Source: an uncultured Verrucomicrobia subdivision 3 bacterium (lineage in GTDB: Bacteria > Verrucomicrobiota > Verrucomicrobiia > Limisphaerales > UBA11358). From it: a DNA stretch of 59,859 nt. The DNA lies in assembly GCA_903850425.1 (NCBI GenBank), contig CAINLR010000028.1, positions 1-59,859 of the forward strand, read 5' to 3'. The notes beneath the pieces are model-generated. The model searched no databases and was not told where the DNA came from. It saw only the letters and a program-made list of their open reading frames with translations. Positions 29,817 through 37,872 of this stretch are shown piece after piece. Numbering within the stretch: position 1 is the first letter of the stretch; each line of letters opens with the position of its first letter. A program made the position numbers and the translations under genes.

Positions 29817-29998
29817 CCGAATTCCGAAATAGAAGGGGAGCGCGCCCGCCTCGGGCGCAGTTTTTCGCGCCCTCGCGGAAAACTCGGACGCACCGAATGG
29901 TTTCGAGGGTTCATGGCACCTTCACGCGCAAGCGGCTGGCCGCGAGGGCGCGGCCAGCGACGCCCGAGGCGGGCGTGCTCCCCAACTTCGAAATTCGG
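29817..29998. repeat. Palindromic intergenic repeat element
   Basis: About 40 bases at 29817-29857 recur inverted at 29961-29998 with few mismatches; both arms contain GGGGAGC[GA]CGCCCGCC. A nested inverted pair, GCGCCCTCGCGG at about 29868-29879 and its complement at 29940-29951, makes the whole 180-bp unit a long foldback. It fills the space between DUF2085 and the radical SAM gene and ends at the latter's start codon. From memory, similar GC-rich foldbacks occur as dispersed repeats in related genomes; a copy number cannot be given from one window. Confidence 0.7.
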
Positions 29999-31501
29999 AT
30001 GAAAGAGCTGCTTCTCTTCGTCCGTCCGCCGCGCCCCCTGTGGCCGTTCAACGGTCCCGCTTCGTCCTTCTGGCCGCCGCTCGCGTTCGCTTCCATGGCC
30101 GCAATGCTGCGCCAGCACTGTCCCGACTGGCGCGTGGAAATTCTCGACGCGCCCGTGCTCGAAATGGGCTGGCGCACGCTTGAAGCGGAACTGCGCGCGC
30201 GTCGTCCTGCTGTCGTCGCGATGGGTGAGGAGGCCGTGAGTTGTGCGGAATGTCTCCGCCTTGCGCGCCTCGCAAAAAGTCTCGGGGCCAAAGTCATCGC
30301 CGGTGGCTGCTTCTTCGGCCACGTCGCACCGCAGGTGTTGCAGACCGGCCTCGTGGATGTCGTCGCGCACGGCGAAGGCGAAAACACCATTGTCGAACTC
30401 GCCGCCGCGCTGCGCGAAAATTCGCCGGACGCCCTCGCGCCGGTCGCGGGAATTTCCTTTCGGCGCGACGGTGAAGTCATCCACACGCGGCATCGTCCGC
30501 TGATCAAAAATCTCGACGAGCTGCCGATGCCGGCTTGGGATTTGCTGCCGATGCATCGCTATGGCGCGGGCAGCCAGAATCATCCCGGCCTCGCCGCCAT
30601 TGAAGCGTCGCGCGGCTGTTTTGACGCCTGTGATTTCTGCGTGCTGTGGCGGCAGATGGGCAACTTCGTCGGCGAACAGACGCGGCCGTTCGTCCGTTTC
30701 AAGTCTGCCGCGCGGCTGCTGGAGGAGATCAAAATTCAGACGCGCAATTTTGGGCGCCAGCATTTCGGCTGGGTGGACCCAAGCTACAACGCGCATCCGC
30801 AGTTGCCCGCCGAACTTGCAGACGCGCTGCTGCGCGAAAATATTTCCGTCAGCATGAGCGCGTGGGTGCGGGCCGACTGCCTCGTGCGCGACGCGCAATC
30901 CGGCGCCATCGCCCGCCAGGTGCGTGGCGGCCTGAAGGAGGTTTACATCGGCGTGGAACGGCCCGACGGCGACGGCTTGAAAACCATTCACAAGACCACG
31001 ACCATTCCCGAAGTCCGCGCAGCCTTCCGCATTTTGGCGCAGGAATTCCCGGAGGTCTTCACGGTCGGTAGTTTCATCTACGGCCTGCCCGGCGACACCC
31101 CGGAAACCGTGCGGGCCATTTTCCGGCTCTCGCACGAACTGGAATTGAACCAGGCGTTCTTCATTCCGCTCACGCCGCTGCCGGGCACGCCCTTTTGGCG
31201 CGACGAACTGTGGGACGCCACCGGCGAAAGTTTTCGCGACTATAATTTTCTGCCCTCCAGCACGCGGCCGGGCGCGCGGCGCGAGCTCGAATGGGCGCTG
31301 CTCATGGCCTTCGCCACGCACTGGACGCCCGCGCGCCTCCGCTCTCTCTGGCGCAGCGTCGCCCACCGCAGTCCGCGCTGCCGGCGCATGAGCCTGCGAC
31401 TCCTGGGACGCAGCACTTGGTTCGCGGCGCACGGCATGGTGAGCAATCTGATCGCCGGTAAACGCGCCGGCATGATCTTCCCGCGCTGGTATGAAAGTTG
31501 A
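29999..31501 (+). CDS. B12-binding radical SAM protein
   Basis: A 500-residue protein from the ATG at 29999. The N-terminal part resembles a cobalamin-binding fold ('AMGEEAVSCAECLRLARLAKSLG', 'VVAHGEGENTIVELAAAL'). The radical SAM cluster motif is C207-x3-C211-x2-C214 in 'GCFDACDFC'. A typical barrel follows ('GLKEVYIGVERPDGDGL', 'FIYGLPGDTPETVR'). Enzymes of this class perform methylation, rearrangement or other radical chemistry on lipids, cofactors or natural products. The start codon touches the end of the repeat element, so the promoter may lie within or beyond that element. Confidence 0.87.
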   Translation: MKELLLFVRPPRPLWPFNGPASSFWPPLAFASMAAMLRQHCPDWRVEILDAPVLEMGWRTLEAELRARRPAVVAMGEEAVSCAECLRLARLAKSLGAKVIAGGCFFGHVAPQVLQTGLVDVVAHGEGENTIVELAAALRENSPDALAPVAGISFRRDGEVIHTRHRPLIKNLDELPMPAWDLLPMHRYGAGSQNHPGLAAIEASRGCFDACDFCVLWRQMGNFVGEQTRPFVRFKSAARLLEEIKIQTRNFGRQHFGWVDPSYNAHPQLPAELADALLRENISVSMSAWVRADCLVRDAQSGAIARQVRGGLKEVYIGVERPDGDGLKTIHKTTTIPEVRAAFRILAQEFPEVFTVGSFIYGLPGDTPETVRAIFRLSHELELNQAFFIPLTPLPGTPFWRDELWDATGESFRDYNFLPSSTRPGARRELEWALLMAFATHWTPARLRSLWRSVAHRSPRCRRMSLRLLGRSTWFAAHGMVSNLIAGKRAGMIFPRWYES

Positions 31502-31835
31502 CTCAGGACTTGGGTGGTTATTCATTTGAGTCAGTTTACCGGCGGTTCCAACCTCAATGTCCCAGCGCTCGCAACCTCCCATTTCAGTCAATGCGTGGCC
31601 GGTAATTTGGCGGTCTGCGATGGCCGGCCTGGCCATCGCGCCGGACGCCACCTTTGGCTGCAGCGGGTGGATTGAATTTATTTTTTCGAGGAGAGTGGCT
31701 TTCCACTTCCAGAACATTTGGGCGGAGGGAAATCAAAACCGGCGGCGGGAAGTTGCTGCCGCAAAGCACGGATCTTCTCTTTTTGCGCGACAAACGAACC
31801 AAAGCAATTTGCAGCAACTTCCCGCCGCCGGTTTC
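31502..31835. other. Region between radical SAM gene and CRISPR array (presumed leader side)
   Basis: No convincing gene is present. It contains a short perfect hairpin at 31618-31638 (CGATGGCC/GGCCATCG) and a large perfect 24-bp inverted repeat at 31736-31834 listed separately. If the array is read on the plus strand, as the tracrRNA implies, the leader and promoter should lie here. No strong -35/-10 pair was seen. Confidence 0.5.
31736..31834. repeat. Perfect 24-bp inverted repeat abutting the CRISPR array
   Basis: The 24 bases at 31736-31759 (starting AAACCGGCGGCGGGAAG) are exactly complementary to 31811-31834 (ending CCGCCGCCGGTTT). The loop is 51 bases. The right arm ends one base before the first CRISPR repeat. 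No T-tract follows, so it is not a standard terminator. It could be a leader structure, a foldback repeat, or inverted duplication left by integration. Confidence 0.9.
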
Positions 31836-32266
31836 GCTTTGCCTTGATTCCAAAACCGGGTAGAGCAAACTTGCAGCTACACGGCTGCCAACCAGACCGC
31901 GGCTTTGCCTTGATTCCAAAACCGGGTAGAGCAAACTTCTCTGCACGGCCGCGCGCACGCTGGTGACGCTTTGCCTTGATTCCAAAACCGGGTAGAGCAA
32001 ACTTTGCCTTGCTTCGCCTTACGGGGGCTTGCTGCTTTGCCTTGATTCCAAAACCGGGTAGAGCAAACTCCAGCGTGTTCGCGCTCGCCGGCCTGTTCAG
32101 CTTTGCCTTGATTCCAAAACCGGGTAGAGCAAACTCGTTGTGAATGCCACGGCACTGATCACCAGCTTTGCCTTGATTCCAAAACCGGGTAGAGCAAACT
32201 CCCGCTGCACCTGACCGCCGAGCGCATTCAGCTTTGCCTTGATTCCAAAACCGGGTAGAGCAAACT
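31836..32266 (+). CRISPR. CRISPR array, seven identical 36-nt repeats, type II
   Basis: Repeats lie at 31836-31871, 31902-31937, 31968-32003, 32034-32069, 32100-32135, 32165-32200 and 32231-32266. Each begins GCTTTGCCTTGATTCC and ends GGGTAGAGCAAACT, and all seven are identical. Five spacers are 30 nt and one (32136-32164) is 29 nt. Complementarity of the repeat's first 16 bases to the anti-repeat at 36903-36918 sets the transcribed strand as plus. The array runs toward the 3' end of cas2, ending 41 bases short of its stop. The repeat termini are weakly inverted (GCTTTGC ... GCAAACT). Confidence 0.98.
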
Positions 32267-32307
32267 CAGTGGGCGCAAGCCCCTGATTTTGCTCTGCTTG
32301 GGCAATA

Positions 32308-32622
32308 CTACCAGAGTTGGATTTGTTCGGGCATGTCCTCGGCTTCCGACTCGGTGGCGGGCGATCCTTGAATGACGTAGGACTTCTCCCATTGGGAGCG
32401 GGTCACAAAAATGGCGCGGACGCTGCCTTCGGGCGGCAGGTGTTTCTTCACCCGCTCAATGTGGGTTTTCTGGCGCGCGAAGGTCACGCATGACCGGGCA
32501 TACACGCTGAACTGGATCATCTGATAGCCGTCATCAATCAGGAAATTGCGAAAGTCCGTTGCGGCCTTGCGCTGCTTTTTGGCGGTCACCGGCAGATCAA
32601 ATGTCACGACGAGCCAGCCCAT
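32308..32622 (-). CDS. cas2: CRISPR-associated protein Cas2
   Basis: A 104-residue protein opening 'MGWLVVTFDLPVTAKKQRKA', the Cas2 beta1 strand with the conserved FDLP. 'FLIDDGYQMIQFSVYAR' and 'HLPPEGSVRAIFVT' complete the ferredoxin-like fold. Cas2 bridges two Cas1 dimers in the spacer-integration complex. An ATG at 32622 is favoured because it begins the first strand; a GTG at 32643 would add seven residues. The gene overlaps the end of cas1 by 19 bases, indicating translational coupling in one operon. Confidence 0.95.
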   Translation of the reverse strand: MGWLVVTFDLPVTAKKQRKAATDFRNFLIDDGYQMIQFSVYARSCVTFARQKTHIERVKKHLPPEGSVRAIFVTRSQWEKSYVIQGSPATESEAEDMPEQIQLW

Positions 32623-33527
32623 TTTATATTTTTCGGTGTCCACGGTTTATAATGGCGCGGCTGGTTTTCAATCACGGCCTTGCGGAAGCCGCGCACCACG
32701 CCTTCAATCACGCCCTGAATCTCCAGACTCAAATCTAGATAATCCACGCGCTCCAGCGGAAAGCCCGTCACCCATTTCCGAAATTCCTTGGTCACTCCCC
32801 ATTCATTCGGATTTGGATGCTGTTTCACCCACTGGCACACACGCCAGTCCACGCACGGACGGAACTGCTCCATTATGTCATACGCGAGGGGTGTGCTGCG
32901 TTCGCGCTCGACGTGGGAAATGCCGAACGTGGGATCAAGGCCGACGCCGAAAAGTTTTTGCAACACGGTGGAAAGCAGCACGGCGTAACCGTAATTCAAA
33001 AAATGATTCAACCCGCCGCGTCCCCGGTCGCGGATGAAATCCTCATCGTTCAACGTCCGGCCAAAAATCTGCCAGAACATTTTTGCGCAGATGGCTTCCT
33101 TGTGCGGTTTTTTGCCGAAGGCCGTTTGCCGCATCGCGTCCAGACCCTTGCCTTCCGGTGCGATGTGTTCCGCCAGCGCGAATTGATTCTGGCACTTGGC
33201 ATCAATGGTTTTTTGCCAGAGTGCGGCGCGGGCTTTGGGCGTGAGATTGATCATCGCGCGGGAAAGAATCGTGTCCGTGGAGCGGTTCGCAGGCAGCACT
33301 AGGCTGACCGGCTTGAACGATTCGCAGATGATGAGCGCGACGCCGTGTTTGGCCGCTTCCAGAAAAAGGTTGCTTTGGATGCTCGCCGAGAAGCTGGTGA
33401 TGATAATGGATGCGATGTCCTCCAGCGGAAGTTTCTTTTCACCTTCCGCCGTTTTGCAGGTCAACTGGCCGTCTTTGCAACTCAAGGAGCATTGCGGCGA
33501 GTCTATACTGACGATGTGATAGGACAT
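32604..33527 (-). CDS. cas1: CRISPR-associated endonuclease Cas1 (type II)
   Basis: A 307-residue integrase with the type II N-terminus 'MSYHIVSIDSPQCSLSC'. The metal-binding catalytic residues appear as Glu144 ('HKEAICAKMFW'), His205 ('FGISHVERE') and Glu220 ('AYDIMEQFRP'). 'FNYGYAVL'-type text ('LNHFLNYGYAVLLS') lies between them. Cas1 inserts new spacers at the leader-end repeat with Cas2. The gene overlaps cas9 upstream by 25 bases and cas2 downstream by 19, forming a tight cas9-cas1-cas2 operon. No csn2 or cas4 is present, which fits subtype II-C. Confidence 0.97.
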   Translation of the reverse strand: MSYHIVSIDSPQCSLSCKDGQLTCKTAEGEKKLPLEDIASIIITSFSASIQSNLFLEAAKHGVALIICESFKPVSLVLPANRSTDTILSRAMINLTPKARAALWQKTIDAKCQNQFALAEHIAPEGKGLDAMRQTAFGKKPHKEAICAKMFWQIFGRTLNDEDFIRDRGRGGLNHFLNYGYAVLLSTVLQKLFGVGLDPTFGISHVERERSTPLAYDIMEQFRPCVDWRVCQWVKQHPNPNEWGVTKEFRKWVTGFPLERVDYLDLSLEIQGVIEGVVRGFRKAVIENQPRHYKPWTPKNIKWAGSS

Positions 33528-36500
33528 GACACGATGCCCGTGAGCGGAGTTTTTAGAATTTCAAGACCGCCATCATAAAGAGCTTGCAGCCTGATGTTCT
33601 GTGCGCAGTCGTCACGACCTGATACACGATACTGGATAACGTCGGGCGAACTTAAATCCACAAGAAAGCCGGCGCGTTGGTTTAACTGGACTCCGCGAAC
33701 CATCCACAATCCCCGATAATCACTTCGTCCTGCTTTCTTTGGCACACGAATCAGAGTTCCAATTCGCAACAAGCGCGGCACTTTGCCGGAATTTTTCAGC
33801 TTCAATTCCTGAATCCGAGGCCAGACCTTGTGCCACGGGACGACGACAAATTTTTCCTCACCTTCCTCTGCATGGTCGAGAATAGCGACGCCGAAGTTAT
33901 CCGTGATGACACGCACGCCTTTCTGTGGTGTGAGTTTTCCGGGTTTCAGTCCGACAACTTTGCTCGCGGATTCTTCCGTCTCTTTCACGGAAAGTTTTCC
34001 CGTCTTGGCGTCGCGCGATTGTTGGCGCAGATAAACGCGGCCATCTTTGATTGCAGTTATGCCCCGCGTATTTTCCTCCACGCGCATTCCGCTCATGTCC
34101 GCCGGAATATGTTGCACCACACGTTTCTCTGCGAGGCGTCGGCGGATTTGTTCCTTCAAGGTTTCCGGCAATTCCGTCAAACCAAAGCGGCCTTGCGAAT
34201 CAAAATCAAAGTAGCCCGTTGAACGCAGCACGGCCTTGTCCGCCTCATTCGGATTGCGTTTGAGCATCAGTTCCCACAAGCCGCCGTTGTTCGGGAGATA
34301 ATGCGAGGCCAGTCCCAGCACACACGCATCGAGCGCGTGATGCAGATGCGTGACACTGCGGATGTCGGTTTTATTTTTCAGCGTGCCGTCCGCTTCCTTC
34401 ACCTGCGGCGCGGCGAGCGCGAGACAGCCAAGCAGATTCCAGCCTTTGCGAACCGTGCCCGTCACCGAGCCGGGCAGGGAAACCACCTTGCTGGGATTGA
34501 GGTCGGGCAACGTCTTCCGAATGTTCTGCGCGCCCAGCCGGACAAGCTGCGAGGTGACGGTCAAATCGCGCGGCACGAATCCTTTTTCCTCGTAGCTTTG
34601 CAGCAGCAACAATTCTTTGCGTTTCTTTTTCCGGCGTTTGTCGTCGTCGTGGCCTTTGAACGTCTCCAAACTTTCTGCCCATTTCTTGAAGCGCGTGATT
34701 GAGACAATGGACAACTGCGGCATCCCTTCCACGGGTCTTTCCTGCTCGTCGCTGACAAATTGAATCGCCGTCCGCTGGCCTTTCATCTTGTTCACTTCCG
34801 AGAACGTGATGACCAGCGAATCCAAACCGTCTGCCGGACGCAGCGAGCGCGGGATGATGTGGTCTTTGTCCACCTGCCGCGAAACCAAGTCCAGTGCGTC
34901 GTAAGTTTTGCCGGTGTAAGGACAAGTCCAGCCCAAATCTTCCGCGATGCGCGCCTTGCGGATGAGTCCGGCGGTGATTTGAATCGGCTGGCCGTTGTAA
35001 GTTTTGCCGTCCAAATCTTTTTCCAACTTCGCCGCGACGCCGTGATGGTTTGCCAGCCGTCGTCCCAAGTCTTGCTGGATTTCCTTCGCCGACTTGCCAG
35101 ACATTTCGCGCAAATCGCGGTTCACTTCGATGGTGACTTTGGCCACGCGCGATTTGTCGCCGTTCGCGTAGGCGGGTTCGGCGATTAAATCTTTCAACAG
35201 CCGTTCCAAAATTAAAAGCCGGTGACGGACGAGATGATTGTTCGTCTGCTGGTCAATCTGCTTTTGCAACTGCGCCTGCCGCATGGCATCCGTGATTTCC
35301 AAGCAGCCGCCGGTTTCCTTGGGATGTTTGCCCGCCATGACTTCGGCATAAGCGCGGACGAGCAGGGGACGGGCGTAAGCGGCGCGCCCATCCAGCTTTT
35401 TGATCGTCAACGGCTCGCGCAACAACACCTCGCGATTGAAGGAACCTTCCTTCTTGCCGCGCTTCGTATTCGCAGCATCGGCGAGTTTGTTCAACTCCAC
35501 TTCAAACTCCGTCAGTGGTTCGCCGAGCTTTTGCGCGATGGCGCAGATGCATTCCAGCGTCACCAGCTTGCCGCGCTGCCAGAGGTCGCGGACGCGCTTT
35601 TGCACACGCGGAGAAAATGCCGGCCAGAGGGTTTTCAATTTGTCGCCCCGGACAAGTTTTTGAATCGGATCAAGCAGCAGCCCGTCTTTCGCGTCCGGGT
35701 GCATGAGCATGGTTTCCAAATTATTTCGCTCGCAGCCCGGCAGTTCGCGGATGGCCTTTTTCAATTCGGTCGGCGTCAACGCGCCTTCGCTTACCATAAG
35801 CGCGTTGATTTTCTTTCGCTCGTCGCCCGTCAGCGGTCGCAATTCTTTTTCCTTTGCCCCGGCCACGCGGATGTTTGCCAGCGCCATTGCCCAGCGGAAT
35901 TTGAAAAACTCCGGGCAGTTCTTGGACGGAACTTTTTCGCCAGTGCTGGGACAGGTGGAAATGATGCGGTTGTCAAAGCGGGGAACAAGCTGACCAAACA
36001 GCAGTCCGCCTTGATACCGCGCGGGCAATTTCAAACCGGGGACAGCGGCGGCCTGCCAATCTTTAAACAGACTGTTCAGAAACACGGCGTTGATGGCGGG
36101 CAGATTCTTCTGGTGAAGTTCCAACAGACGGCGGACTTCTTTTTCAACGATGGGGCGGGGGAACGCGGCATTGAGACGCTTGAAATTTTTTTCGGAAGAT
36201 TGTTTCTCGCCGAGCGGTTCGAGGCCGAGAACCTTGCAGAAGGTCTCAGCCATCGTCTGCGTGCTGTGTTGCGCCATGAGTGCGTTGGCGTTCTTTTCTT
36301 TTTCCGTGTCGGACTTTTTGTCATCTTGCTCGGTAGCTGTAAGCGCGTCTTCGGACGCATTTGCCCATCGCGAATTTCCATCGTAACCGCGATTGTGGGC
36401 ATACCACCGCAGGACGTCCCAAAGCTCCTTCCAACCGAGCAAGTATTTCGCCTCGCCATTGCTGGCAAGAACACGCGCGGCCAAAAACCACGGCACGGCA

Positions 36501-36856
36501 TTGCCACCGGCCTGCTGATGCTTTTGTTTCAGTTCTTCGGCAGACAAAACTTTCAGGTGCGCCAAAAGTTTTTCCATTTGGGCAATCCGCTGGCGGGTGG
36601 CGCGGGCGTGGCGGCGTTGACGGCGGTAATCGCGTCGCTTGCTGGCCAGGCAATCATCCGCGCCAAACGTGACGACACCGCAGCCGAGCAGGTTGACGCG
36701 CGGTGCCGGAGGAGTTTCCTGCGTAACGGTTCTTTTGGCGAATGGTGTGGGACTGGTGAAGTTCTCCGCTCCAGTGTTTTGCAGCACCGCCCAGCCGAGG
36801 GAACTGTGGCCGACGTCGAAGGAAAGTTCCAAATCCTGAATCGTGTTGTTGCCCAT
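33503..36856 (-). CDS. cas9: CRISPR effector endonuclease Cas9, compact type II-C-like
   Basis: An 1117-residue RNA-guided nuclease. RuvC-I is 'LSFDVGHSSLGWAVL' (Asp14); an arginine-rich bridge helix spans about 73-92 ('SKRRDYRRQRRHARATRQR'). RuvC-II is 'VTIEVNRDL' (Glu577). The HNH is 'CPYTGKTY ... DKDHIIPRS ... SEVNKMKG' (His666, Asn689), and RuvC-III is 'HLHHALDACVLG' (His840, Asp843). All catalytic residues are intact, so it should cut both strands. Length and lack of csn2/cas4 suggest II-C. Unusual features are a charged low-complexity run at about 168-192 and a Lys/Arg cluster at 739-748 after the HNH. The C-terminal PAM-interacting region cannot be decoded by eye. Confidence 0.97.
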   Translation of the reverse strand: MGNNTIQDLELSFDVGHSSLGWAVLQNTGAENFTSPTPFAKRTVTQETPPAPRVNLLGCGVVTFGADDCLASKRRDYRRQRRHARATRQRIAQMEKLLAHLKVLSAEELKQKHQQAGGNAVPWFLAARVLASNGEAKYLLGWKELWDVLRWYAHNRGYDGNSRWANASEDALTATEQDDKKSDTEKEKNANALMAQHSTQTMAETFCKVLGLEPLGEKQSSEKNFKRLNAAFPRPIVEKEVRRLLELHQKNLPAINAVFLNSLFKDWQAAAVPGLKLPARYQGGLLFGQLVPRFDNRIISTCPSTGEKVPSKNCPEFFKFRWAMALANIRVAGAKEKELRPLTGDERKKINALMVSEGALTPTELKKAIRELPGCERNNLETMLMHPDAKDGLLLDPIQKLVRGDKLKTLWPAFSPRVQKRVRDLWQRGKLVTLECICAIAQKLGEPLTEFEVELNKLADAANTKRGKKEGSFNREVLLREPLTIKKLDGRAAYARPLLVRAYAEVMAGKHPKETGGCLEITDAMRQAQLQKQIDQQTNNHLVRHRLLILERLLKDLIAEPAYANGDKSRVAKVTIEVNRDLREMSGKSAKEIQQDLGRRLANHHGVAAKLEKDLDGKTYNGQPIQITAGLIRKARIAEDLGWTCPYTGKTYDALDLVSRQVDKDHIIPRSLRPADGLDSLVITFSEVNKMKGQRTAIQFVSDEQERPVEGMPQLSIVSITRFKKWAESLETFKGHDDDKRRKKKRKELLLLQSYEEKGFVPRDLTVTSQLVRLGAQNIRKTLPDLNPSKVVSLPGSVTGTVRKGWNLLGCLALAAPQVKEADGTLKNKTDIRSVTHLHHALDACVLGLASHYLPNNGGLWELMLKRNPNEADKAVLRSTGYFDFDSQGRFGLTELPETLKEQIRRRLAEKRVVQHIPADMSGMRVEENTRGITAIKDGRVYLRQQSRDAKTGKLSVKETEESASKVVGLKPGKLTPQKGVRVITDNFGVAILDHAEEGEEKFVVVPWHKVWPRIQELKLKNSGKVPRLLRIGTLIRVPKKAGRSDYRGLWMVRGVQLNQRAGFLVDLSSPDVIQYRVSGRDDCAQNIRLQALYDGGLEILKTPLTGIVSCPITSSV

Positions 36857-36879: not shown

Positions 36880-37023
36880 CCAGCTTTGATTAAAGTCCCG
36901 ATGGAATCAAGACAAAGTTAGATAACGCAGACCGTGCCACTGTTCGCCATGCGGACACGCCGCGTTAAAAAGCGTTTCTAAAAAACCCGGCGGGGTTTTC
37001 AAGCCCCGCCGGGTTTGTTTTTT
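36880..37023 (+). ncRNA. tracrRNA
   Basis: The segment 36903-36918 (GGAATCAAGACAAAGT) pairs with the first 16 repeat bases with one mismatch and one G-U pair, and CCCG at 36897-36900 can pair with CGGG further along the repeat. Downstream lies a nexus-like fold closed by AACGC (about 36923) and GCGTT (about 36962), then a terminator hairpin with six T's. It diverges from cas9, starting about 25-45 bases from the cas9 ATG. The exact 5' end is estimated. The RNA would anneal to pre-crRNA for RNase III processing and Cas9 binding. Confidence 0.88.
36983..37023 (+). terminator. Terminator of tracrRNA, probably bidirectional
   Basis: A perfect 13-bp stem (AAACCCGGCGGGG at 36983-36995, complement at 37004-37016) with an 8-base loop is followed by G and six T's. 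On the minus strand it is followed by TTTTTTAG-like sequence, so it could also stop transcription coming from the gene at 37102-37872. Confidence 0.92.
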
Positions 37024-37101: not shown

Positions 37102-37872
37102 TTATGGTTGTGGGGTGGTCGGGAGCGGGGTGGTTTCCTCCGGATGGGTCTCGGTGGCTTTTGGCTTTGGCGCGGGCGGCGGGGTGCCGGGTCCGTGGCC
37201 GTAGTTGCGCACGACGCGCGCGGCATGGTAGGCGGCAATCATCGCCTGGCCGGCCTCGGTGCCGTTGAATCGCAGAATCATGTCGTCCACTTGCACGAAC
37301 AGGTTTTCCACGGCGTTGAAGCGAAGGCGCAATTGCTCGGTGAGGCTGTGGCGGTCGCTCTGCGCCTGTTGTGGCGCGGTGATGTATTTGGCGTAATCGG
37401 TGATGCCGTCATCCACTACTTTGGCGGTGGCGGCGGTGAGGTCGTATTTGGCGGCGTCCGTGGCGGCCGGGTCGGCGATCACTTGATGCGCCAGGTCGCT
37501 GACAATGCGCGCCTTGCCCAGCAACACTTCGTCGCGGAAACGCAGCCAGTCGCTGGGGACGAAATCCACTTTGGCGGCGTTGGTCAGGTCGTTCTTGTCG
37601 GTGAACCAAGTGACCAGCGCCCGGGCCAGCGAATGCGCGGTGGTGTCCAGCGTTTTTTCCGCGTGCATCTTGTCGGCCGTGGTGCCGGTGGGGACGATGC
37701 CCTGTTGCTGGCAGAATTTTTCCAGGGCCAGCACGCCGGCGGCGGCGGCGGCGACTTTGGTGGTGAAAATCACCGGGTTGAGCTGGAACCAGAGAGGCTG
37801 GCGCTTGGGATCCTGCAGAATACCCAATGAAGTTTGAAACATTCCGATCCGGTTAGTGAATTCATTTTTCAT
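37102..37872 (-). CDS. Unknown helical protein with proline-rich tail
   Basis: A 256-residue protein with no signal peptide. Most of it is predicted helical ('KFCQQQGIVPTGTTADKMHAE', 'LARALVTWFTDKNDLTN'), with an alanine-rich hydrophobic stretch near residue 42. The last 30 residues are Pro/Thr/Lys rich ('PGTPPPAPKPKATETHPEE'). No family is recognised. It sits upstream of the tracrRNA on the opposite strand and has its own terminator, so it is probably unrelated to CRISPR. The neighbouring intergenic minisatellite lies just upstream of its start. Confidence 0.7.
   Translation of the reverse strand: MKNEFTNRIGMFQTSLGILQDPKRQPLWFQLNPVIFTTKVAAAAAGVLALEKFCQQQGIVPTGTTADKMHAEKTLDTTAHSLARALVTWFTDKNDLTNAAKVDFVPSDWLRFRDEVLLGKARIVSDLAHQVIADPAATDAAKYDLTAATAKVVDDGITDYAKYITAPQQAQSDRHSLTEQLRLRFNAVENLFVQVDDMILRFNGTEAGQAMIAAYHAARVVRNYGHGPGTPPPAPKPKATETHPEETTPLPTTPQP

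What the first reader, a model, noticed from the sequence alone, without database searches (positions are those of the whole stretch)
31736..31834. Perfect 24-bp inverted repeat ending one base before the first CRISPR repeat
Two 24-base arms are exactly complementary and enclose 51 bases, with the right arm touching the leader-end repeat. This is where Cas1-Cas2 integrates new spacers and where the leader should be. Perfect arms of this length are unlikely by chance. The foldback could anchor integration, cap the pre-crRNA, act as a dsRNA substrate for RNase III, or be a repeat that landed at the integration hotspot.
Basis: seen in the sequence. Interest (0 to 1): 0.62.

Follow-up and report, generated by a model that had tools for sequence, protein, structure and literature searches.

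The report
Hairpin trapping a stray CRISPR guide
A long, perfect DNA hairpin sits against the oldest repeat of a bacterial CRISPR-Cas9 array, where it most likely ties up the useless guide RNA that this repeat would otherwise make; this kind of safeguard was described recently, and this is an unusually strong example.

Summary
The inverted repeat is real: two perfect 24-nt arms (31736-31759, 31811-31834), 51-nt loop, ending 1 nt before the first of seven identical CRISPR repeats; no second copy was found in its genome. A tracrRNA upstream of cas9 shows that crRNAs are read on the + strand, in a cas9-cas1-cas2 (II-C-like) locus. II-C systems are reported to acquire spacers at the crRNA-3' end, here beside cas2; the inverted repeat lies at the crRNA-5' end. 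There the oldest repeat would pair with upstream sequence to give an extraneous crRNA (ecrRNA); published II-C counter-measures are an upstream terminator, a hairpin trapping the ecrRNA guide, or a mutated first repeat. Here 24 of the 25 guide nucleotides are locked (mean unpaired probability 0.02, versus 0.37-0.58 for the six real spacers) and the first repeat is intact. One of 23 other arrays with a readable 5' end has the same geometry in unrelated sequence (25-bp perfect stem, 0 nt from the repeat); the other 22 do not. Best reading: an ecrRNA guide trap without a clear U-tract. New member of a known kind; nothing was tested at the bench.

The parts
31736..31759 (+). left arm of the perfect inverted repeat (24 nt)
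31760..31810 (+). 51-nt loop
31811..31834 (+). right arm; 24 of the 25 nt that would form the guide of the extraneous crRNA
31726..31735 (+). outer extension of the left arm, pairs 7 of 10 with 31835-31844 (into the first repeat)
   Evidence: 34-nt arms, 91%; bases printed
31836..31871 (+). first (by inference oldest, 'extra') repeat, intact 36-nt consensus
31836..32266 (+). CRISPR array, 7 identical repeats, 6 spacers, crRNA sense = +
32251..32301 (+). predicted hairpin of the 3' half of the last repeat with the 41-nt flank before cas2 (expected acquisition end)
36902..37023 (+). predicted tracrRNA: anti-repeat 36902-36917, terminator stem 36983-37016 and T-run
   Evidence: duplex with repeat -26 kcal/mol
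33503..36856 (-). cas9 (1117 aa)
32604..33527 (-). cas1, type II
32308..32643 (-). cas2, type II
29897..31501 (+). upstream gene (radical SAM-like; best NCBIfam hit below its cut-off), reads toward the array; possible source of read-through
   Evidence: orthologues

Best explanation
The inverted repeat is an RNA hairpin at the oldest (crRNA-5') end of a type II-C array that neutralises the extraneous crRNA. Shown here: the predicted tracrRNA makes crRNAs + strand, the first repeat is intact, and 24 of the 25 nt just before it are perfectly complementary to a stretch 51 nt further upstream. Inferred: transcripts entering from upstream (for example from the codirectional gene ending at 31501) would fold so that the would-be guide (31811-31835) is buried in a 24-bp stem before Cas9 and tracrRNA can use it; the stem may also be cut by RNase III. 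Internal crRNAs are unaffected because they come from spacers and, in II-C, usually from promoters within repeats.
For: Polarity: anti-repeat and terminator of a + strand tracrRNA. Placement: the right arm covers 24 of the 25 nt next to the repeat. Folding: mean unpaired probability of the 25-nt guide 0.022, against 0.37-0.58 before the other six repeats and 0.36 when the left arm is reversed in silico; 0 of 123 spacers tested over 24 arrays fall below 0.1; fold z-score -5.07, 0 of 200 shuffles as stable. Recurrence: L041 (same genus, cas9 55-59% identical, array on the other side of cas9 and codirectional with it) has a 25-bp perfect stem of other sequence, loop 35, 0 nt from the crRNA-5' first repeat, guide unpaired 0.005. 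So the feature follows the crRNA-5' end, not the cas genes. Controls: 0 of 800 random positions have a helix >=24 in the last 25 nt, 1 of 800 has 22. The published kind: guide-sequestering hairpins in II-C, one tested in C. jejuni (PMC12080349).
Against: No transcription data: that any RNA enters the array from upstream is inferred. The two trap sequences are unrelated, so there is no covariation proof of selection. A hairpin this stable could also stop polymerase or be a neutral inverted duplication. Long perfect stems also occur elsewhere: 3 of the 6 with arms >=20 in 262,631 nt of relative loci are not at an array's 5' edge. The left arm is itself a 24-nt perfect target of the guide, so a leaky trap could cause self-cutting unless the PAM (unknown) is absent. 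The repeat's own first 8 nt are mostly paired in internal repeats too, so extra occlusion of the repeat is not shown.
Confidence: 0.62

Rival explanations
1. It is a transcription terminator or insulator between the upstream gene and the array (sense), or a stop for antisense transcripts leaving the array (cas operon read-through).
For: Stems close with AAA/UUU; antisense tails are T-rich (window TGATTTCC, 4 T of 8; L041 ATTTTATC, 5 of 8). Terminators upstream are one of the three published II-C strategies (PMC12080349). A 26-bp inverted repeat 122 nt upstream of another array (L083) would fit an insulator.
Against: Sense tails hold 3 T in the 8 nt after the stem (CGCTTTGC; L041 GCTTTGCC) against 6 of 8 for the tracrRNA terminator. 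The terminator scan, which allows loops of 3-8 only, finds none on the + strand here; its single hit, on the - strand, is a different 7-pair hairpin inside the right arm. Loops of 51 and 35 nt are large for a terminator (recalled). A terminator need not end exactly at the repeat in two arrays. In L041 the cas genes lie downstream of the array, so cas read-through does not cross it (coordinates). Three orthologues of the upstream gene keep no such stem: DNA similarity ends at the stop codon and no perfect stem >=20 lies in those loci.
Confidence: 0.2
2. It is a neutral inverted duplication or recombination scar at the array edge with no function.
For: The match continues at lower identity into the repeat, as if the array edge had been copied in inverted form; L038 has a decayed repeat plus its inverse (22 bp, loop 6). 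Absent from 22 of 24 array edges in this form.
Against: Perfect arms in two unrelated sequences at 0-1 nt from the repeat. By my arithmetic (5 places per 546,861 nt of the window's genome, 2 positions, 23 other arrays; the rate of other genomes may differ) about 0.0004 were expected, 1 was seen.
Confidence: 0.13
3. It is an acquisition element: leader DNA that anchors Cas1-Cas2.
For: It touches a repeat; one search's paper leaves room for II-C subgroups with different acquisition ends.
Against: It lies at the crRNA-5' end; II-C is reported to acquire at the crRNA-3' end. In relatives 5 of 23 first repeats are mutated and 3 more arrays have a relic repeat one unit upstream, while 1 of 26 last repeats is mutated (L090, a two-repeat array); 3' flanks are more alike (5 of 153 pairs with score >=25 against 0 of 153) (L078's arrays with variable-length repeats left out of the repeat counts as told in the full report).
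Confidence: 0.03
4. The trapped guide is a regulated RNA: when released, it directs Cas9 to the left arm or another locus (scaRNA-like control).
For: The left arm is a perfect 24-nt target; six further sites with 3 mismatches to a 21-mer exist in the genome, against 1 for the reversed-pattern control.
Against: No site with 1 or 2 mismatches; the six sites were not examined; at the left arm the base next to the repeat side mismatches (31835 C against T); no data on release.
Confidence: 0.02

Closest known systems
II-C ecrRNA guide-sequestering hairpin (Feussner et al. 2025, PMC12080349)
   Same: Same subtype, same end of the array, the 25-nt ecrRNA guide pairs with upstream sequence. First repeat unmutated: the paper says two thirds of systems with a helix in the guide or upstream region have neither a mutated extra repeat nor a terminator.
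   Different: Here 24 contiguous pairs cover nearly the whole guide with a 51-nt loop; the published statistic used 8-bp helices with up to 2 unpaired nt, and its C. jejuni example is also a predicted Rho-independent terminator. The window stem lacks a clear U-tract.
Rho-independent terminators upstream of II-C arrays (same paper)
   Same: Same position, same proposed purpose (no ecrRNA).
   Different: No clear U-tract in the sense direction, very large loop.
Leader-repeat hairpin of II-A (Liao et al. 2022, known only as cited) and VI-B systems (Migur et al. 2026, PMC13187072; abstract, introduction, discussion and passages seen)
   Same: Upstream RNA folds to block ecrRNA.
   Different: Those pair with the first repeat, which is at the acquisition end; here the guide region is paired, at the expected oldest end, with only a weak extension into the repeat.

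Membership tests
Type II-C CRISPR-Cas | cas9, cas1, cas2 only, no csn2 or cas4 (as in a passage of PMC6008519) | tested here: met
   cas9-cas1-cas2 adjacent, type II models; the next ORF (37102-37872) matches no NCBIfam or PADLOC family; other ORFs of the window were not scanned for csn2/cas4, save the radical SAM-like one
Type II-C CRISPR-Cas | tracrRNA complementary to the repeat | tested here: met
   by sequence and folding; expression not tested
Type II-C CRISPR-Cas | promoter (-10) inside each repeat | tested here: inconclusive
   TATAAT at repeat 3' ends in L044, L045, L078, L079; window repeat ends CAAACT and the scan finds no promoter-like site
Type II-C CRISPR-Cas | acquisition at the crRNA-3' end | tested here: inconclusive
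   supported by mutated first repeats in relatives and papers; the window's seven repeats are identical and no acquisition was seen
ecrRNA guide-trapping hairpin (Feussner et al. 2025) | helix of >=8 bp between the 25-nt ecrRNA guide and upstream sequence | tested here: met
   24 bp
ecrRNA guide-trapping hairpin (Feussner et al. 2025) | lowers ecrRNA formation or targeting | not testable with these tools
   needs RNA or cell-free activity data
Rho-independent terminator | GC stem, short loop, U-tract | tested here: not met
   51-nt loop, 3 T of 8 in the sense tail, no + strand hit in scan; antisense tail 4 T of 8; RNIE not available
Dispersed palindromic element (MITE/REP) | many copies in the genome | tested here: not met
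   the L041 element has no other match in 49 genomes of the genus and the L083 element none in the 5 genomes searched
Leader / Cas1-Cas2 integration site | lies at the acquisition end | tested here: inconclusive
   polarity, relatives and papers point to the other end; acquisition not observed in this strain

The most novel reading that the evidence does not exclude
These arrays re-invent the trap by inverted duplication of their own oldest edge: the left arm starts as a backward copy of guide plus repeat start, so one event both locks the guide and gives the left arm a repeat-like, PAM-less flank (31735-31728 on the - strand reads TGATTTCC, against CGCTTTGC at 31835-31842) that protects it from self-cutting. 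The trap would then be sequence-free, arise anew in each lineage, and work without termination.
Probability: 0.15. Interest if true: 0.55.

Novelty: new member of a known kind. Interest (0 to 1): 0.36.

Why it matters
It is an extreme and clean case of a recently proposed safeguard. Feussner et al. say that trapping and termination are hard to tell apart in C. jejuni because their hairpin is also a predicted terminator; this one covers almost the whole guide and lacks an obvious U-tract, and a second array of the genus has the same geometry in another sequence. It also corrects the likely polarity: what looked like the leader of this array is, by indirect evidence, its oldest end.

Tried and rejected
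Rejected: dispersed element; terminator inherited with the upstream radical SAM-like gene (three orthologues, in genomes without such arrays, show no DNA similarity past the stop codon and no perfect stem >=20); a known Rfam RNA (0 matches in the window at gathering thresholds). The right arm as an ordinary spacer with a lost repeat in front: the best repeat-like score in 31736-31812 is reached by 68 of 500 random stretches.

Led nowhere: no spacer is shared (exact match) between arrays among 460 spacers, so acquisition order could not be read from strains. Cas9's closest relative by identity (G023:C329) is a 3.4-kb contig without array. Extra occlusion of the first repeat by the stem is not distinguishable from the folding of internal repeats. 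A five-term literature search for an inverted repeat in II-C leaders gave 0 papers (open-licence PMC papers only, one wording). A first count of the 3' hairpin used a control that included the next repeat; it was redone. In one search the guide helix of five arrays with an earlier imperfect repeat was measured from the first exact repeat; it was redone from the first repeat-like unit.

Rows dropped: 10 of 34 array pieces with less than 120 nt of 5' flank; L035 is the same contig as L040 by length and content; L037 (Akkermansia, other repeat) left out of the counts; L078's arrays left out of repeat-mutation counts as said. Some genomes give two array pieces on different contigs (G059, G032, G228, G583), possibly one array split. 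Two 5' flanks are short (L046 159 nt, L089 165 nt). Relic repeats in L080 and L091 were seen by eye in the flanks printed.

Full report
What is there. The arms at 31736-31759 and 31811-31834 are perfect inverted copies, 24 nt, 51 nt apart. The right arm ends one base before the first of seven identical 36-nt repeats (31836-32266). It is the only perfect inverted repeat with arms >=14 and loop 3-80 in the window. A sample of 546,861 nt from 40 other contigs of this genome lists 6 with arms >=20, two being registers of one place, so such stems are rare but not unique. No other copy of the element was found in the genome.

Which end of the array it is. cas9, cas1 and cas2 lie on the - strand. A + strand stretch between cas9 and the next ORF starts with an anti-repeat (36902-36917, 15 of 16 matches to the repeat's complement) and ends in a strong terminator (36983-37023); its duplex with the repeat is -26 kcal/mol. 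So crRNAs are + strand, guide first and repeat second, and 31835 is the crRNA-5' edge. The gene content is that of II-C. In II-C, new spacers are reported to enter at the crRNA-3' end: passages of PMC12638026, passages of PMC6008519 on Riemerella, where insertion is between cas2 and the array, the introduction of PMC13187072 and the results of PMC12080349. The window's integration end is therefore expected at 32266, next to cas2. A caution: PMC12638026 also suggests that II-C may hold subgroups with different acquisition ends.

Relatives agree on the whole. A repeat-pair pattern found arrays in 20 of 320 genomes of the order and in 8 of 387 of the phylum sample, own genome included in both. 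With two named contigs (L034, L036) this gave 34 array pieces, 24 with at least 120 nt of 5' flank. At the 5' end, leaving out the second array of L078, the first repeat is mutated in 5 of 23 (L040, L079, L082, L141, L143), and three more have a decayed or partial repeat one unit upstream (L038; L080 and L091, by eye). At the 3' end, leaving out both L078 arrays, the last repeat is mutated in 1 of 26, a two-repeat array. Flanks at the 3' end resemble each other more (mean pairwise score 8.5 against 4.3; 5 against 0 of 153 pairs at score >=25; 18 arrays). The window's own repeats are all identical and give no hint.

What the stem would do. In a guide-first system the repeat at the crRNA-5' edge has no spacer before it; with upstream transcription it would make an extraneous crRNA whose guide is the flanking 25 nt. 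Feussner et al. 2025 (PMC12080349; seen: abstract, part of Methods, the Results sections, Discussion and passages) report three counter-measures in II-C: upstream terminators, hairpins that sequester the guide, and mutated first repeats. Here 24 of the 25 guide nt are in the stem. In a fold of 150 nt plus the repeat their mean unpaired probability is 0.022; before the six other repeats it is 0.37-0.58, and with the left arm reversed 0.36. Over the 24 arrays, 0 of 123 spacers tested fall below 0.1. Among first edges, besides the window and L041, only L038 does (0.081, measured at its decayed first unit). The window's first repeat is intact, so the stem would be the only visible barrier.

Recurrence. 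L041 (G023, same genus) has a perfect 25-bp stem with a 35-nt loop directly at the first repeat (guide unpaired 0.005), although its sequence is different apart from a GGCGGCGG core seen by eye, its array lies on the other side of cas9, and crRNAs there run with the cas genes. L083 has a 26-bp stem 122 nt upstream of its array; L038 has a 22-bp stem made of a decayed repeat and its inverse, 36 nt upstream of its first good repeat. The other 20 of 24 show no perfect stem >=20 bp in the 300 nt upstream, or the shorter flank held, and 22 of 24 do not reach 8 contiguous Watson-Crick pairs in the guide. Of 800 random positions none has a helix of 24 or more in the last 25 nt, one has 22. From one search's 5 places I compute about 0.0004 expected stems ending 0-1 nt from one of the 23 other edges; one was seen. 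Against this, 3 of the 6 stems >=20 in 262,631 nt of relative loci lie away from array 5' edges.

Trap or terminator. After the stem the sense strand reads CGCTTTGC (3 T of 8), L041 GCTTTGCC (3 of 8); the tracrRNA terminator has 6 of 8. The antisense tails are more T-rich (TGATTTCC 4 of 8, ATTTTATC 5 of 8). The scan, limited to loops of 3-8, finds no + strand terminator here. Sense termination is thus not excluded but is not the better reading; antisense termination remains open. Orthologues of the upstream gene in three congeners have no similar stem.

Limits. No RNA data exist; transcription into the array, trapping and RNase III cutting are inferences. The genome is known here only as an unnamed assembly of 197 contigs. 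The PAM is unknown, so whether the left arm could be cut is open.

Judgement.

Noticed in passing
32251-32301: The 3' half of the last repeat pairs with the 41-nt flank before cas2 in a long predicted hairpin. Last repeats with >=14 such pairs: 8 of 28 arrays (window, L038, L041, L042, L043, L044, L046, L081), against 9 of 283 controls with own spacers and 50 of 754 with swapped flanks; the means hardly differ (8.5, 8.2, 6.9), so it is a feature of a subset.
   Followed up: partly
L085, L087, L045, L140, L034 (3' flanks): Some arrays without that pairing carry a separate strong hairpin right after the last repeat (for example 16 bp, loop 12 in L085), perhaps stopping the last repeat's promoter.
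   Followed up: partly
window repeats; L044, L045, L078, L079: These four relatives have TATAAT at the repeat 3' end; the window repeat has CAAACT instead, so its internal promoter is doubtful.
   Followed up: no
L038:12208-12298: A 38-bp perfect inverted repeat (loop 15) lies between cas9 and cas1 in G085, which are about 2.1 kb apart there.
   Followed up: no
L078: G128 carries arrays of 122 and 21 repeats in one 19.9-kb stretch, with repeats of at least two lengths.
   Followed up: no
37102-37872 (-): A 256-aa ORF next to the tracrRNA matches no NCBIfam or PADLOC family.
   Followed up: no
32002-32015: A near copy of the repeat start (13 of 14) spans the last 2 nt of a repeat and the first 12 nt of the following spacer.
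   Followed up: no
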